Shown here: positions 29,567-59,752 of the stretch, one piece after another | Layout: each line of letters opens with the position of its first letter | Numbering within the stretch: the stretch's first letter is position 1 | From: Nocardiopsis potens DSM 45234 | GTDB lineage: Bacteria; Actinomycetota; Actinomycetes; Streptosporangiales; Streptosporangiaceae | DNA: 64,000 nucleotides | Assembly (NCBI RefSeq): GCF_000341105.1 | Contig: NZ_ANBB01000044.1 | Coordinates: 62,001 to 126,000 of the forward strand | Direction: 5' to 3' | The notes under the pieces: model-generated | Told to the model about the DNA's origin: nothing | The model's database searches: none | The model's input: only the letters and a program-made list of their open reading frames with translations | Made by a program: the position numbers and the translations under genes

Positions 29567-29613
29567 AAGGGGCGGGGAGAAGCGGTTCGCACCGCTTCTC
29601 CCCGCCCCTTTTT
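29567..29613 (+). terminator. Strong rho-independent terminator
   Basis: A perfect 19-base stem (29567-29585 with 29592-29610), 6-base loop, and a run of five Ts overlapping the end of the right arm. This is the clearest intrinsic terminator in the window, and it is unusual in such a GC-rich genome. Confidence 0.88.
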
Positions 29614-41357: not shown

Positions 41358-41521
41358 CGGCCCCGGTAACGACTTCGCCTCGCTTCGGAACGCCCCCGTG
41401 ACCTTCCGCCCCGGCCGCGGGATCGTTCCCGTTCCGTCACCCCGCGGTGACCTCCGGTGCGCCCCGCGCGGTGCGCACCGGGCCGCCGGACCGCCGCCGT
41501 ACGCCGCTCCCCCGGAGCCCC

Positions 41522-41534
41522 GTACGGTAGGGGC
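41522..41534 (+). promoter_or_regulatory. Leaderless -10 (TACGGT) of the hydrolase gene
   Basis: TACGGT at 41523-41528 is six bases before ATG 41535, which has no separate ribosome-binding sequence except the overlapping GGGG. Confidence 0.45.
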
Positions 41535-42635
41535 ATGCCTTGGCCGCCGCTCCTCCCCGCCCGACCGCGCCCACCGCACCGGGGCGCCCGCCGGACCCCG
41601 CTGCGCCTCGCCGCGGCGGCCGCCGCGGCCGCGCTGCTGGCCGCGGGCTGCGTCCCCGGCGCGGAGCAGGCCGCCCCGCCCGGCGTCGGACCGGTCGAGC
41701 GGGACGTCCGCTTCGCCAGCGGCCCGGACACCCTGTACGGCACCTTCGCGCTGCCGCCCGGGGCCGAGGGGAAGGTGCCGGCCGCGCTGATCATCTCGGG
41801 CAGCGGCCCCACCGACCGCGACGGCAACAGCCCCGGCCGGGCGGACGCGGAGACCAACCTCAACTTCGCCCGGGTGCTCGCCGACGCCGGGGTCGCCTCG
41901 CTCCGCTACGACAAGCTGGGCAGCGGCGAGACCGGCATGGGCTCCCGCGGCGCCGACGACCCGGTCGACTACGACGTCTTCGAGCAGGAGATGGTCGACG
42001 CCTACGCCGAGCTGGCCGCCCAGCCCGAGGTGGACCCCTCCCGCCTGCTGGTGCTCGGCCACAGCGAGGGCGCGCTGTTCGCGCTGCGCGCCCCGGAGGC
42101 CGTCGGCGGGCACCCGCCGGCCGCGCTCGTGCTGGCCGCCCCGCTCGGCACCCGGTACCTGGACCTGCTCGACCGCCAGCTGACCGAGCAGATGCGCACC
42201 GCGGAGACCGCCGGCACCTCCGAGGCCGACGTCACCGCCCTCCTCTCCGACGTGCGCACCGCCACCGCGCGGCTGCGCGCGGGCGAGCCCCTGCCCGAGG
42301 ACCTCTCCCCGGAGCTGGACCCGCTGTTCAGCCCGCAGACCGAGCCGTTCCTCCGCGAGATCGACGCGCTGGACCCGCTCGACCTGGCCCGGGACCTCCC
42401 CGCCGGGACCCCCGCCCTGGTGCTGTGGGGCACCGAGGACGCCCAGGTCACCGAGGCCGAGGTGGACCGGCTGACCGGCGGGCTGCCCGACGCGGCCCGG
42501 GTCGACCTGGACGGCGCCGACCACGTCTTCCGGATGTACGACCCCGCCCCGGGCTCGGTCGCCACCGACGCCGAGCGCGGCTTCTCCCCCGACGCCGCCC
42601 CGGCCCTGGAGGACTTCCTCGACACGGCCCTGTGA
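41535..42635 (+). CDS. Lipoprotein alpha/beta-hydrolase
   Basis: A 366-residue secreted lipoprotein esterase or peptidase-like hydrolase. The signal peptide has a lipobox ending LAAGC, with C39 lipidated. The fold shows IISGSGPTDRDGN (oxyanion loop, about 87-99), nucleophile S177 in GHSEGAL, an acid in the TPALVLWGTEDAQV stretch and a C-terminal DHVFRMY histidine. The SGSGPTDRDG motif is shared with alpha/beta hydrolases of unknown substrate (YqiA-like group). It sits alone downstream of lexA; the start is ATG 41535. A perfect 58-bp palindrome follows the stop. Confidence 0.87.
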   Translation: MPWPPLLPARPRPPHRGARRTPLRLAAAAAAAALLAAGCVPGAEQAAPPGVGPVERDVRFASGPDTLYGTFALPPGAEGKVPAALIISGSGPTDRDGNSPGRADAETNLNFARVLADAGVASLRYDKLGSGETGMGSRGADDPVDYDVFEQEMVDAYAELAAQPEVDPSRLLVLGHSEGALFALRAPEAVGGHPPAALVLAAPLGTRYLDLLDRQLTEQMRTAETAGTSEADVTALLSDVRTATARLRAGEPLPEDLSPELDPLFSPQTEPFLREIDALDPLDLARDLPAGTPALVLWGTEDAQVTEAEVDRLTGGLPDAARVDLDGADHVFRMYDPAPGSVATDAERGFSPDAAPALEDFLDTAL

Positions 42636-42662
42636 CCGGGCGCCGCTCCCGGCCCTCCCCGG

Positions 42663-42720
42663 TGTTCTCGGCGTCGCGGCCGCGTCAGAGCGCTCTGACG
42701 CGGCCGCGACGCCGAGAACA
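42663..42720. terminator. Perfect 58-bp zero-spacer palindrome
   Basis: Left arm 42663-42691 and right arm 42692-42720 are exact reverse complements of 29 bases with no spacer. It lies 28 bases after the hydrolase stop and ~180 bases before the converging gene at 42901. It could terminate both transcripts or extrude as a cruciform. The centre reads AGAGC-GCTCT. Confidence 0.85.
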
Positions 42721-42900
42721 GCGCCCTGGTGCCGGTTCGGGCGGGCGCCCCGCCCCGGGTGGGCGGAGCGTCCGCCGGCGGCATGCACCGTCCCGCGGAA
42801 ACACCCTCGGTCACCCTCCGGGTGACCGTTCGGCCCGCCGGCGGCCGGGATGCCGCGCCCCGGACGGGCCCGGCGGGAGCGGCCCGCCTGCGCCGCGGGG

Positions 42901-44232
42901 TCAGCCCCCGCTCTCCTCGATCCCGGCGACCACCTCGCCGGCCAGGCGCTTGGCGCCGTCGACCATGTCGGCGTCGGGGATCGGCTCGGTGCGCCCGTAG
43001 TCGGCCGCGGAGGAGTAGCAGGTCTCGACGTAGAGGTTGGCGGTGCGCACGCCGACGCAGCCCCAGCCGAGCGGGGCGACCTCGGCGTCGTACCAGGAGT
43101 AGGCCTCGTCGCCGAGCCCGGAGAGCGCGGTGCGCTCGTGCCGCTGCGAGGCGCCGTTCAGCAGCTCCGCGGAGGCCTCCTCGCCGGCGGAGCCGCCCTC
43201 GGTGCCGGTGCGCACCATGACCACGCGCACCGCGGAGGGCGTGTGCGCGGAGTCCTCTCCGGTCGCCCAGCGGCACTGCACGCCGTCGCGGCCCTCCTGC
43301 TCCAGGCCGTCGATGCGGCCGCCGATCTCGGCCTCGGCCTCGGGGACCAGCTCGTCCAGGACGCTCCCCTCGACGACCGGGCACTCGGGGGTCTTCTCGA
43401 AGCCGTCCGAGCCGACCAGGCCCACCACGGCCCACACCCCGGCGCCGACCAGCGCCACGCCGCCGAGGGCCAGCGCGGTGACGGCGGCGGTGGCGCACCC
43501 CCGGTTGGCGCGCGGCGCCTCCGGGGACGGGCCGGCGCCGCTCCCCGGCGGCCCCTGCGGCGGCCCGGAGGGCGGCCCCGCAGGCGGACCCTGCGGATTC
43601 TGCGGCCCCTGGCCCCCCTGCGGCCCGAAAGCGGAGGTCCCCTGCGGGGGCGGTGCGGGGTTCCCCTGCCCGGGGCCGCCCGGGCCGGGGCTCCCGGACG
43701 CACCGGCGGACGCCGCCGGAACAGTCCCGGTACGAGCCGCGCCGGCCCCGTCGGACGGCACCGCCGCTCCCGCCGGCGCTCCGAGCGCTTCCCCCGGAGC
43801 CGGCCGGCCGTCCGGACCGGCCGCAGCCCCCTGCTGATCCGCCCGGCCGGGCGCGCCGGAAGGCCCTGAAGGCCGACCGTCCCGCTCCGGATGCTCCGGG
43901 CCGCCGGCCGGGGGCGGGGAATCCGCTCCGGGAGCCTCGCCGTCCGGGGCCGACCGGTCGTCCGGACCGGCCGCGGGCGCCCCCTGCTCGGTCCGGGCGG
44001 GATCAGCGGAGGGCTCGGCGGGCTCCGAAGGCCGGTCGTCCTGTTCCGGGGCGTCCTGTGCCGAAGCGTCCTGTGCCGGGGCGTCCTGCTCCGGGGCGGG
44101 GGCGCCCGCTTCGGGGGCCTCGGTGTCCGGGGCCGGCCGGGGGCGTCCGAGCGGGGGCGGGGCGGTGCCGCCCTCCGGGTCGGAGGCGGACGGGCCGTCG
44201 TGCGGCCCGGTCCGGTCCGGCTGCTCGGACAT
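42901..44232 (-). CDS. Membrane protein with long disordered N-terminus and extracytoplasmic Cys domain
   Basis: A 443-residue protein. About 240 N-terminal residues are low-complexity Pro/Glu/Ala/Gly/Asp, including repeats such as QDAPAQDASAQDAPEQDD. One membrane helix (about 250-275) follows. The extracytoplasmic C-terminal ~165 residues contain four Cys, with CPVVEGSVLDELVP and VQCRWATGED. The last part resembles the C-terminal region of the 44311 protein, so the two may be related DUF3558-like surface proteins. Function unknown. ATG 44232 has GGGAGGCG upstream; a small inverted repeat lies in the promoter. Confidence 0.8.
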   Translation of the reverse strand: MSEQPDRTGPHDGPSASDPEGGTAPPPLGRPRPAPDTEAPEAGAPAPEQDAPAQDASAQDAPEQDDRPSEPAEPSADPARTEQGAPAAGPDDRSAPDGEAPGADSPPPAGGPEHPERDGRPSGPSGAPGRADQQGAAAGPDGRPAPGEALGAPAGAAVPSDGAGAARTGTVPAASAGASGSPGPGGPGQGNPAPPPQGTSAFGPQGGQGPQNPQGPPAGPPSGPPQGPPGSGAGPSPEAPRANRGCATAAVTALALGGVALVGAGVWAVVGLVGSDGFEKTPECPVVEGSVLDELVPEAEAEIGGRIDGLEQEGRDGVQCRWATGEDSAHTPSAVRVVMVRTGTEGGSAGEEASAELLNGASQRHERTALSGLGDEAYSWYDAEVAPLGWGCVGVRTANLYVETCYSSAADYGRTEPIPDADMVDGAKRLAGEVVAGIEESGG

Positions 44233-50117: not shown

Positions 50118-50200
50118 CCCCTCCCCCACTGGTCTCGGCGCCGCCGCCGTCCCGGCGCCGGTCGGGGCGGCGGCGCCGGGAGCGGCGCCGCAGGGTCCGG

Positions 50201-50476: not shown

Positions 50477-50578
50477 CCGACCGCCCCCTGGTCGCTCGCC
50501 CGGCTCCCGTCCCTCCCCTGCTTCCCCGGTATCGGCGCCTTACTCCGCCGACCCGTCCGACCTGCAAGGATCTCGATT

Positions 50579-50614
50579 CCGCGGGGGTGTCGGAGCGCTC
50601 CGGCGCCCCCGCGG
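50579..50614 (-). terminator. Nested hairpin after the importer operon
   Basis: A 9-base outer stem (50579-50587 with 50606-50614) encloses a 12-base palindrome (50591-50602). It lies just beyond the stop of the NagZ-like gene on the minus strand. Confidence 0.6.
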
Positions 50615-50622
50615 CGCCGAGG

Positions 50623-51660
50623 TCATCGCCCGGAGGGCTCGGCGCGCACCCGGGCGGCCATCGCGGCGACCCGGGCGGAGGCCTCCGCCAGCCGGGACTC
50701 GGGCACCTCCCCGGCGGCCACCGCGGCGGCCACCGCCTCCAGGGCCGCCCGGTAGGCCTCCTCCCCGGTGCCGCCCGCGGTGACCGGGTTGCCCAGGCAG
50801 AGCAGGTCGGCGCCGGCGGCGAGCGCGGCGACCGCGCCGCGCGCCACCCCCTCGACCGGGTCGGCGGCGCCGGTGAAGCAGGTGAGCCCCTTCATGTCCA
50901 GGGCGTCGGTGATCGCGACGCCGGTGAACCCGAGCTCCTCGCGGAGCAGCGCGTACCAGCGCGGCGAGACGCTGGCCGGGGCGTCGTCCACCGCGGGGAC
51001 GACGATGTGCCCGGCCATCACCATGTCCGCCCCGGCCCGCACCGCCGCGGCGAACGGCACCAGCTCGCGCTCGGCGAGCAGGCCGGCGCCGATGTCGATG
51101 ACCGGCAGCGCCGCGTGCGAGTCGGTCCGGGTGTCGCCGTGGCCGGGGAAGTGCTTGGCCGCGGCCGCCCGCCCGGCCCGGTGCAGGCCCTCGATGAACG
51201 CGGCGCCGTGCCGCGCGGCCAGGTCCGGGCGGTCGCCGAAGGCGCGCACCCCGATCACCGGGTTGAGCGGGTCGGAGTTGACGTCGGCCACCGGGGAGAG
51301 CGCGGCGTCCACCCCGACCCCGGCGAGCTCCTCGCCGAGCCTGCGGGCCGTCTCCCGGGTGAGGCCGGTGTCGTCGGCGGCGCCCAGTTCGGCGTGGGAC
51401 GGGTAGGGCGGCGTGCCTCCGGCGTGCAGCCTGCTGACCGCGCCGCCCTCCTCGTCGGAGGCGATGAGCAGCCCGGGGGCGAGCCGGTGCAGCTCCGCGG
51501 AGAGCCGGGCGGTGTCGCCGGTGAAGTTCTGCCCGAAGTACAGCACCGAGCCCAGCCCGCCCTCGATGGCGCGGACCAGCCAGGGCGGCGGCTCCGTGCC
51601 CAGGAACCCCGGCATCAGCACCGAGGCGGCCGCCCGCTCGATCCGCTCCGCCGCGCCCAT
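50623..51660 (-). CDS. nagZ: Beta-N-acetylhexosaminidase (glycoside hydrolase family 3, NagZ-like)
   Basis: A 345-residue cytoplasmic GH3 enzyme. KHFPGHGDTRTDSH is the NagZ signature with the general acid-base His/Asp pair, and ITDALDMKG carries the nucleophile Asp. NagZ-type enzymes release GlcNAc from chitobiose or peptidoglycan fragments. The ATG at 51660 overlaps the permease stop (ATGA), so it is coupled to an ABC importer for oligosaccharides, which should supply its substrate. No signal peptide is visible, consistent with cytoplasmic action on imported sugars. Confidence 0.9.
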   Translation of the reverse strand: MGAAERIERAAASVLMPGFLGTEPPPWLVRAIEGGLGSVLYFGQNFTGDTARLSAELHRLAPGLLIASDEEGGAVSRLHAGGTPPYPSHAELGAADDTGLTRETARRLGEELAGVGVDAALSPVADVNSDPLNPVIGVRAFGDRPDLAARHGAAFIEGLHRAGRAAAAKHFPGHGDTRTDSHAALPVIDIGAGLLAERELVPFAAAVRAGADMVMAGHIVVPAVDDAPASVSPRWYALLREELGFTGVAITDALDMKGLTCFTGAADPVEGVARGAVAALAAGADLLCLGNPVTAGGTGEEAYRAALEAVAAAVAAGEVPESRLAEASARVAAMAARVRAEPSGR

Positions 51661-56922: not shown

Positions 56923-56966
56923 CGGCCGGTCCGCCCCGCGGTGCTCTCCGCGGGGCGGACCGGCCG
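56923..56966 (-). terminator. Strong hairpin terminator between tmsB and the P450 unit
   Basis: A perfect 19-base stem (56923-56941 with 56948-56966) with a 6-base loop, 23 bases after the tmsB stop on the minus strand. It separates the tmsAB transcript from the P450 transcript. Confidence 0.82.
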
Positions 56967-58312: not shown

Positions 58313-59752
58313 TCACCTGCTGCTGACGCATTTGGCGTAGAGGTCGAGAAGGCGCCCCTGGGGGTCGTAGGCGTCCTTCAGCGCCCGGTAGCCGTCGCCG
58401 TTGTAGAGCCGCCAGAACTCGTCCTCGGTGTAATAGGCGTCCGAGTAGAGGGATTTATGCCCGCCCAGCCGGGAGACCTCCTCCTCGACCAGCCGGTTGT
58501 GGTGGTGCCGGCGCTGCCCGCGCGTCATCGGCACCATCCCCCAGAACCCGAAGTTCACGTAGAGCCGGTCCCGCTCCAGCGGGTAGAGCGGCCAGGCGGG
58601 GCCGTCCTCCCCGGCGCCCGGCGCCGCCGCCCCCTCGGGCCGGTCCCGCAGCCGCATCGGGCACATCCAGATCGGCGACAGCCCGATCTCGGAGTGGAAG
58701 AACTCCAGGAACTCCGCGCCGCGCTCCACCCCGACCTCGATGTCCTGGATGACCGGCTCCTGCTGGGGCAGCCCCCGGTAGTGGTTGAGCAGCCGGCTGA
58801 AGTCGGTCCGCCGGTCCAGCGCGATCAGCCTGCGGTAGACGTCGGAGCGCTTGAGCGAGCGCGGCCAGAACCTCCGGATCCTCGGGTTCTGCACGCCGAA
58901 CGCCCGCGAGCACCAGAACCAGTCGGTGTCCCAGCGCCACAGGTAGTCCTCGGTGGTGAGGTAGTCGCCGGGGCCGCTGCCCGCGTAGCGCGGGATCGAC
59001 GTGTAGTAGATGTCGTTGCCGGCGTAGTCGCTGGTCCACGGCGCGCTGTCGGTGAAGGAGGCGACGGTCAGGTAGAGCTCGTCGGGACCGAAGGCGACCC
59101 CGTCCACGAAGTCGGCCCGCTCGCCCTCGTGCTCGCGCTCGGCGCAGATCCGGGAGAAGGCGTCCATCGCCTCCTTCGCGTCGGCGAACCGCAGGTGGCG
59201 CAGGTGCACGAAGGGCGCGACCGGCTCCAGCTCGATGCGGAGCCGCAGGCTGTAGCCGAGCGTGCCGTAGGAGTTGGGGAACCCGCGGAACAGCTCGGCG
59301 TGCTCGTTGTCCGGGCGGGCCACCACGGTGTCGCCGGTGGCGGTGAGGATCTCGATCTCCTGGACCGACTCGTGCGGCAGCCCGTTCCGGAACGAGGTGG
59401 ACTCGATGCCCAGGCCGGTGACGGCGCCGCCCAGGGTGATGGTGCGCAGCTGCGGCACCACCAGCGGCATCAGCCCGTGCTGCAGGGTGGCGGCGACCAG
59501 GTCCTCGTAGGTGGTCATGCCGCCGACCTCGGCGGTCCGCCGCTCCGGGTCCACCGAGATCACCGAGGTGAAGGCGGAGACGTCCAGCCGGGGGCCGTCG
59601 TCGGAACCGCGGAACCGGAACAGGTTGGAGGTCGGTTTGGCCAGGCGGACCGGCGCCCCCTCGGGCAGCGCGGCGAAGTCCCTGCGCAGTCGCTGTACGG
59701 CCGCGACGTGGTCGGCGAAGTCCCGCTGCGGAGGCTGACGATGCACGTTCAC
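58313..59752 (-). CDS. tmsA: FAD-binding oxidoreductase (TmsA, 10-methylene reductase)
   Basis: A 479-residue PCMH-type FAD-binding oxidoreductase related to the DHCR24/dwarf1 group. The FAD-binding half has TSVISVDPERRTAEVGGMTT and TITLGGAVTGLGIESTSFR. In the 10-methyl fatty acid pathway TmsA reduces the 10-methylene acyl intermediate made by TmsB. It is first in the tms unit, and tmsB begins 63 bases downstream. GTG 59752 has GGAGTGGGTGA upstream. A TetR-like palindrome sits ~60 bases further upstream. Confidence 0.87.
   Translation of the reverse strand: MNVHRQPPQRDFADHVAAVQRLRRDFAALPEGAPVRLAKPTSNLFRFRGSDDGPRLDVSAFTSVISVDPERRTAEVGGMTTYEDLVAATLQHGLMPLVVPQLRTITLGGAVTGLGIESTSFRNGLPHESVQEIEILTATGDTVVARPDNEHAELFRGFPNSYGTLGYSLRLRIELEPVAPFVHLRHLRFADAKEAMDAFSRICAEREHEGERADFVDGVAFGPDELYLTVASFTDSAPWTSDYAGNDIYYTSIPRYAGSGPGDYLTTEDYLWRWDTDWFWCSRAFGVQNPRIRRFWPRSLKRSDVYRRLIALDRRTDFSRLLNHYRGLPQQEPVIQDIEVGVERGAEFLEFFHSEIGLSPIWMCPMRLRDRPEGAAAPGAGEDGPAWPLYPLERDRLYVNFGFWGMVPMTRGQRRHHHNRLVEEEVSRLGGHKSLYSDAYYTEDEFWRLYNGDGYRALKDAYDPQGRLLDLYAKCVSSR

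What the first reader, a model, noticed from the sequence alone, without database searches (positions are those of the whole stretch)
42663..42720. Perfect 58-bp palindrome with no spacer between two converging genes
Two 29-base arms match exactly with zero spacer. Most terminators have a loop of at least three bases, and a palindrome this long is normally unstable in bacterial DNA. It may be a bidirectional terminator, a cruciform site or a protein-binding element that the cell tolerates. Its centre AGAGCGCTCT is itself symmetric.
Basis: seen in the sequence. Interest (0 to 1): 0.6.

Follow-up and report, generated by a model that had tools for sequence, protein, structure and literature searches.

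The report
Dispersed 64-bp DNA palindrome family
The perfect palindrome is one of probably 150-200 copies of a short, fixed-length, self-complementary DNA element scattered just downstream of genes in Nocardiopsis and related bacteria; it behaves like a small hairpin-shaped mobile repeat that probably also stops transcription from both sides.

Summary
The palindrome is real: 42663-42720, 29 of 29 pairs, no spacer, 24 nt after a stop codon between converging genes. It is not a one-off. It is one copy of a dispersed family of exactly 64-bp elements (here 42660-42723, 31 of 32 pairs). I read 106 copies in 1.55 Mb of the host genome; an unbiased part suggests 150-200 in all. The ends (CGATGATCTYGRCG) are conserved. 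The interior varies, but both arms change together. Related Nocardiopsidaceae carry up to 363 copies with the same ends and length but different interiors. Copies sit at gene 3' ends, are enriched 2.6-fold between converging genes, and turn over fast: 3 of 18 sites are shared with the sister species. The genome has no REP-type (Y1/RAYT) transposase, the elements have no U-tract, and sense-strand mismatches show no G-U bias. Best reading: a REP/MITE-like, non-autonomous mobile palindrome, kept symmetric at the DNA level, that probably acts as a U-less bidirectional terminator. Neither mobility nor termination is shown directly, and the mobilising enzyme is unknown.

The parts
42660..42723 (.). 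64-bp family element (31 of 32 pairs); its core is the perfect 58-bp palindrome 42663-42720
42663..42691 (+). left arm of the perfect palindrome (29 nt)
42692..42720 (-). right arm of the perfect palindrome (29 nt), exact reverse complement of the left arm
41457..42635 (+). alpha/beta-hydrolase (Hydrolase_4, PF12146); stop codon 24 nt before the element (gene start uncertain, 41457 or 41535)
42901..44232 (-). converging gene, no Pfam match; stop codon 177 nt after the element (gene start uncertain)
50565..50628 (.). second, decayed copy of the same 64-bp family (24 of 32 pairs), also between converging genes

Best explanation
The palindrome is one copy of a dispersed, non-autonomous repeat: a 64-bp DNA palindrome with conserved ends (CGATGATCTYGRCG...) and a variable but self-complementary interior. 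It spreads to new places in the genome, survives mainly just downstream of stop codons, and there probably acts as a strong, U-less hairpin that ends or protects transcripts arriving from either side. SHOWN: membership in a high-copy family, fixed length, conserved ends, both-arm covariation, 3'-end location, fast site turnover, no Y1/RAYT transposase, no U-tract. INFERRED: transposition by an unidentified trans-acting enzyme that recognises the ends and/or the hairpin; termination or 3'-end protection; symmetry maintained at the DNA level (for example one arm templating the other in a hairpin intermediate) rather than by selection on the RNA.
For: Family: 106 copies with at least 50 bits in 1.545 Mb of this genome, 91 distinct among 99 64-mers, 36 perfect. 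Covariation: 97.5% of cells pair, 21 of 30 pairs have changes on both sides (422 cells), no shuffle and no slid register comes near. Fixed length: the exact 58-nt spacing between the end motifs accounts for 81 of 95, 116 of 123, 363 of 364, 67 of 69 and 148 of 152 of all spacings allowed, in five genomes; reversed control 0. Interior differs by genome with the same ends. Context: 49 convergent, 51 tandem, 5 divergent, 0 inside genes, against 18.5 / 56.3 / 30.2 expected from intergenic bases; 40 of 51 tandem copies nearer the upstream stop, median 23 nt. Independent set from relatives: 45 / 34 / 8 against 15.6 / 43.1 / 28.3. Turnover: 3 of 18 comparable sites shared with sister species G004; at L140 the element is extra DNA beside an ordinary terminator present in both species. 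DNA-level symmetry: sense-strand mismatches in tandem copies A-C 37 vs G-T 28, and 26 vs 22 in relatives; convergent and tandem copies equally perfect (29.9 vs 29.8 of 32, p=0.98). Terminator-like: MFE -60.2 kcal/mol here; convergent regions with an element have another strong hairpin less often (22% vs 44%, p=0.01).
Against: No mobilising enzyme was found, and no clear target-site duplication: flanks share 3 bp more often than chance (21 vs 12.5, p=0.006), but only as GGG or CCC. Intergenic DNA between the two species is too diverged for clean insertion borders at most sites. Loss in G004 instead of gain in G000 is not excluded. In tandem regions the element does not replace other hairpins (22% vs 20%). 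No transcript data were available, so termination is inferred. Gene calls come from my own simple codon-usage caller.
Confidence: 0.6

Rival explanations
1. It is simply a bidirectional intrinsic (U-less) transcription terminator of converging genes. The family similarity comes from selection for strong terminators plus local duplication or gene conversion, not from a mobile element.
For: 3'-end location and 2.6-fold enrichment between converging genes; very stable hairpin; fewer other hairpins in convergent regions that hold an element. U-lacking structured 3' ends are common in Streptomyces clavuligerus (PMC8269248).
Against: Terminators do not need a fixed 64-bp length, conserved outer ends or near-identity over 100 loci. 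No G-U bias in the sense RNA and no difference between convergent and tandem copies. Some copies sit beside another terminator (L140).
Confidence: 0.25
2. It is a REP element of the classical kind, mobilised by a RAYT (Y1 tyrosine transposase).
For: High-copy extragenic palindromes at gene 3' ends, and a few closely spaced doublets in N. endophytica (90-93 bp).
Against: No GT(A/G)G head in the family consensus. No PF01797 match in this genome or in G004, both rich in copies. The Y1 genes of other genomes have no copy near them.
Confidence: 0.05
3. It is a binding site for a dimeric DNA-binding protein (for example a LacI/CelR-type operator, centre GAGCGCTC, or a nucleoid protein).
For: The centre TCAGAGCGCTCTGA resembles actinobacterial LacI-family operators such as TGAGAGCGCTCTCA (PMC3377646).
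Against: The centre varies within the family and is replaced in relatives that keep the ends. Copies lie after genes and avoid divergent promoter regions. A 64-bp palindrome far exceeds such sites.
Confidence: 0.07
4. It is an assembly artefact (inverted duplication or chimeric reads).
For: Several contigs of this assembly end within about 100 bp of an arm, so the repeats do disturb assembly.
Against: This copy lies inside a 170-kb contig. The same elements occur by the dozen in an independent assembly of a sister species in 3 contigs and in other genera. Different copies have different symmetric interiors.
Confidence: 0.01

Closest known systems
REP / REPIN-BIME elements of enterobacteria, Pseudomonas and Stenotrophomonas with RAYT transposases (PMC2817692)
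   Same: Short extragenic palindromes, hundreds per genome, 3' ends of genes, species-specific sequence, occasional doublets.
   Different: Ends are CGATGATCTYG, not GT(A/G)G; fixed 64 bp, often with no loop at all; arms covary; no RAYT in the genome.
Miniature inverted-repeat transposable elements (MITEs)
   Same: Short, non-coding, conserved terminal inverted ends, intergenic, presence/absence between sister species.
   Different: No parent transposon with the same ends was found, no clear target duplication, and the element is nothing but two abutting inverted arms with a variable interior.
U-less (I-shaped) bidirectional terminators of high-GC actinobacteria (PMC8269248)
   Same: Strong GC-rich hairpin just after stop codons and between converging genes, no U-tract.
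   Different: Known ones are not dispersed copies of one fixed-length element with conserved ends; activity was not tested here.
Integron attC sites (recalled, not tested)
   Same: Recombination sites in which hairpin structure and short conserved ends matter more than the interior sequence.
   Different: No cassettes or integrase context; recalled only as an analogy for structure-based recognition.

Membership tests
REP/RAYT elements | GT(A/G)G head next to the palindrome | tested here: not met
   Consensus ends are CGATGATCTYGRCG in about 100 copies; no such head in flank profiles.
REP/RAYT elements | Cognate Y1 (RAYT) transposase in the genome | tested here: not met
   PF01797: no match in G000 or G004, although the control genomes ring as expected.
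REP/RAYT elements | High-copy extragenic palindromes | tested here: met
   106 copies in 1.55 Mb, none inside a predicted gene.
MITE | Conserved terminal inverted repeats | tested here: met
   Ends conserved within and across genomes.
MITE | Parent autonomous transposon with the same ends | tested here: inconclusive
   Unpaired half-elements in 2.3 Mb of two genomes join only non-coding repeats; the rest of the genome was not readable.
MITE | Target-site duplication | tested here: inconclusive
   Flanking 3-mers identical in 21 of 106 vs 12.5 expected, all GGG or CCC.
Canonical intrinsic terminator | Hairpin followed by a U-tract | tested here: not met
   Hairpin yes; 5 or more T in the next 10 nt at only 1 of 212 flanks; the terminator scan finds none at this site.
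U-less (I-shaped) terminator | Stable stem close after a stop codon, no U-tract | tested here: met
U-less (I-shaped) terminator | Measured termination | not testable with these tools
   No transcript data available.
LacI/CelR-type operator | Conserved central operator upstream of promoters | tested here: not met
   Centre not conserved across relatives; copies lie at 3' ends and avoid divergent regions.

The most novel reading that the evidence does not exclude
A new class of mobile palindrome, recognised mainly by its end motif, its exact length and its ability to fold. It is copied through a hairpin intermediate in which one arm templates the other, so that every new copy is born perfectly symmetric whatever its interior sequence, and it is moved by an enzyme that is not a RAYT.
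Probability: 0.3. Interest if true: 0.78.

Novelty: new variant of a known kind. Interest (0 to 1): 0.58.

Why it matters
Dispersed extragenic palindromes are best understood in proteobacteria, where RAYT transposases are thought to drive them. Here is a dense actinobacterial family without a RAYT, with a strictly fixed length and with arms that change together. That makes two questions testable: what enzyme copies it, and how such perfect symmetry is kept while the sequence drifts. It also bears on how high-GC actinomycetes without U-tracts end transcripts between converging genes, and on why draft assemblies of these genomes tend to break at such places. No earlier description was found in the open literature searched; that library is incomplete.

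Tried and rejected
Rfam: no match in the window. Search for the exact arm: unique, so arm identity alone would have hidden the family. RAYT/Y1 transposase: absent from this genome and from G004, the two genomes that carry this subfamily in high copy, and Y1 genes elsewhere are not flanked by copies. RNA-level selection: rejected as the cause of symmetry because G-T mismatches are not favoured over A-C on the sense strand, and because convergent and tandem copies are equally perfect. Autonomous parent element: half-palindromes lead into 1.2-1.6-kb repeats, but these have no predicted gene. Target-site duplication scan: only a weak G/C-run signal. Orthologous intergenic regions in sister species: too diverged for clean borders except at L140. 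Central operator idea (CelR-like): rejected on lack of conservation and on location. Structure prediction of proteins was not needed.

Full report
OBSERVATION. The window is G000:C44:62001-126000 of a 6.9-Mb draft genome in 133 contigs. The palindrome at 42663-42720 is exactly as described: 29-nt arms, 100% complementary, no spacer. It lies 24 nt after the stop of a + strand Hydrolase_4 gene (stop at 42635) and 177 nt from the stop of a - strand gene at 42901. As RNA the 58-mer folds to -60.2 kcal/mol with a GCGC tetraloop, and the region folds 7.7 standard deviations better than shuffles. No U-run follows it, and the terminator scan finds nothing. In 372 kb of this genome, order-2 Markov sequences contained no perfect hairpin with arms of 12 bp or more, against 56 real ones.

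IT IS ONE COPY OF A FAMILY. The arm itself is unique in the genome at up to 3 mismatches. But a scan for perfect hairpins in nearby DNA found longer relatives, for example CGATGATCTTGACGTTGCGGCCCTATCAGAGC|GCTCTGATAGGGCCGCAACGTCAAGATCATCG. These share the ends, the GCGG block and the total length of 64 bp. The copy in the finding is 42660-42723 in that frame, with one mismatched pair. A second, decayed copy lies in the window at 50565-50628. From contig C44 and other stretches not chosen for having copies (10 copies in 372 kb), I estimate roughly 150-200 copies in the genome.

SYMMETRY. Of 99 copies that are exactly 64 nt, 91 are distinct, 36 are perfectly palindromic (32 of 32) and 21 have 31 of 32 pairs; mean pairwise identity is about 77%. 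In the model alignment 97.5% of cells pair; 21 of 30 pairs show changes on both sides (422 cells), with 0 of 500 shuffles and no slid register coming close. So both arms change together. Is this selection on an RNA hairpin? In tandem copies, where the sense strand is known, A-C mismatches (37) are as common as G-T (28), and in relatives 26 against 22. Convergent and tandem copies are equally symmetric (29.9 vs 29.8 pairs of 32, p=0.98). Symmetry therefore looks like a DNA-level property, either made when copies are made or restored by template switching. This last step is inference.

LOCATION. None of the 106 copies lies inside a predicted gene; 49 are between converging genes, 51 in tandem gaps, 5 in divergent gaps. 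Intergenic base counts predict 18.5, 56.3 and 30.2. In tandem gaps 40 of 51 are nearer the upstream stop (p=6e-5), median 23 nt after it. An independent set from named relatives gives 45 / 34 / 8 against 15.6 / 43.1 / 28.3 expected. Convergent regions with an element have another strong hairpin less often than those without (22% vs 44%, p=0.01), but tandem regions do not differ (22% vs 20%). Gene calls come from a simple codon-usage caller that I wrote, reliable for gene ends rather than starts.

RELATIVES. A pattern that fixes only the two ends (TGATCTYGR...YCRAGATCA), with any spacing from 24 to 50, occurs 95 times in this genome and 13-364 times in five same-genus genomes, 152 and 106 times in another genus and 101 times in a third. 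It is essentially absent from most of 299 genomes of the family, and the reversed control is near zero. Requiring the exact spacing of 40 keeps 81 of 95, 116 of 123, 363 of 364, 55 of 77, 67 of 69, 148 of 152, 88 of 101 and 100 of 106. Length is thus fixed while the interior differs completely between genomes and even between subfamilies of one genome. Across 297 genomes of the class the exact pattern is nearly confined to this family, with two nearly fully palindromic 58-mers in one genome of another family, G354. Named carriers include Nocardiopsis endophytica, N. suaedae, N. halophila, N. chromatogenes, Actinorugispora endophytica and Murinocardiopsis flavida. G003, same genus as the window, has a contig of the same number and length as N. 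endophytica RSe5-2 (59,798 bp), so the host is very probably a Nocardiopsis in the GTDB sense; the exact species was not determined.

TURNOVER. In the sister species G004, whose flanking genes are about 90-95% identical, only 3 of 18 comparable sites are occupied in both genomes. The site in this finding is empty in G004. At L140 the G004 sequence runs straight from the gene region into an ordinary hairpin terminator, while G000 has about 100 extra bases holding the 64-mer next to the same terminator. At the shared sites the two species differ by both-arm changes and by decay. Flanks are C-rich on one side and G-rich on the other, and the bases touching the element match directly more often than by chance (3 bp: 21 vs 12.5, p=0.006), but only as GGG or CCC.

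WHAT MOVES IT. The classical answer for REP elements, a RAYT (Y1 transposase), fails: PF01797 has no match in this genome or in G004, and the family consensus has no GT(A/G)G head, the defining mark in PMC2817692. Unpaired half-elements do exist: in at least seven places one arm, cut at the palindrome centre, runs into a conserved block and then into a 1.2-1.6-kb repeat made of inverted arrays of about 74-bp units round a core. No gene is predicted inside these repeats, so they do not supply an enzyme. Whether they insert into palindrome centres or share ends with them is unresolved.

FUNCTION. Highly structured transcript ends without U-tracts are common in Streptomyces clavuligerus and have been compared with I-shaped terminators or with 3' ends protected after Rho termination (PMC8269248). 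A 30-bp GC-rich stem just after the stop codon fits either role, and from both sides between converging genes. I think this likely (about 60%) as an effect of the element, but secondary to its nature as a dispersed repeat.

STABILITY AND ARTEFACT. The host encodes SbcD above the curated cut-off, and at least 36 perfect 64-bp palindromes coexist with it, so this length is evidently tolerated. Some contigs end within about 100 bp of an arm, as expected for hairpins in short-read assemblies. The copy in question lies well inside a 170-kb contig, and G004, in 3 contigs, has dozens of copies.

VERDICT. Observation confirmed; interpretation partly right but incomplete. This is a new, dense, fixed-length family of dispersed palindromes in Nocardiopsidaceae, REP/MITE-like in behaviour but not a REP/RAYT member by test, with a probable side role as bidirectional U-less terminator.

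Noticed in passing
L039:17970-19183 (= contig C44:137970-139183, outside the window); L112:15701-16929; L122:14009-15546; L295:11629-13102: A second dispersed repeat, 1.2-1.6 kb, in both genomes: inverted arrays of about 70-77-bp GC-rich units around a core bounded by a roughly 31-bp inverted repeat, no gene predicted inside; about 17 copies in 1.5 Mb of this genome and about 8 in 0.8 Mb of the sister species.
   Followed up: partly
L042:~839, L093:~509, L112:15626, L116:~768, L089, L039, L295:11562 and 13169: Half of a 64-bp palindrome, cut at its centre, joined by a conserved block (GGTTTCCAGCGTCCGTTGCAACACCGCACACCA) to the large array repeat; at L295 the two ends carry halves of different palindrome subfamilies.
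   Followed up: partly
window 50565-50628; weaker matches at 50127-50187, 59521-59565, 2497-2555: Further copies or remnants of the same palindrome family in the window; the one at 50565-50628 overlaps the 3' end of a minus-strand gene.
   Followed up: partly
window 29567-29610 and 56923-56966: Perfect hairpins with 20- and 19-bp arms outside the family; the first, between converging genes, is followed by a run of T and looks like an ordinary terminator.
   Followed up: no
N. endophytica loci L222, L237, L253, L270, L276: Pairs of 64-bp elements of different subfamilies spaced 90-93 bp start to start, reminiscent of REP doublets (BIMEs).
   Followed up: partly
G000 contig ends C42, C50, C79, C99, C19: Contigs of the draft assembly end within about 100 bp of a palindrome arm, suggesting that the elements break short-read assemblies.
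   Followed up: no
G354:C28:14483-14540 and C87:20682-20739: Two palindromes with the same ends and the same 58-nt spacing in a genome of a different family of the class, possibly horizontal spread.
   Followed up: no
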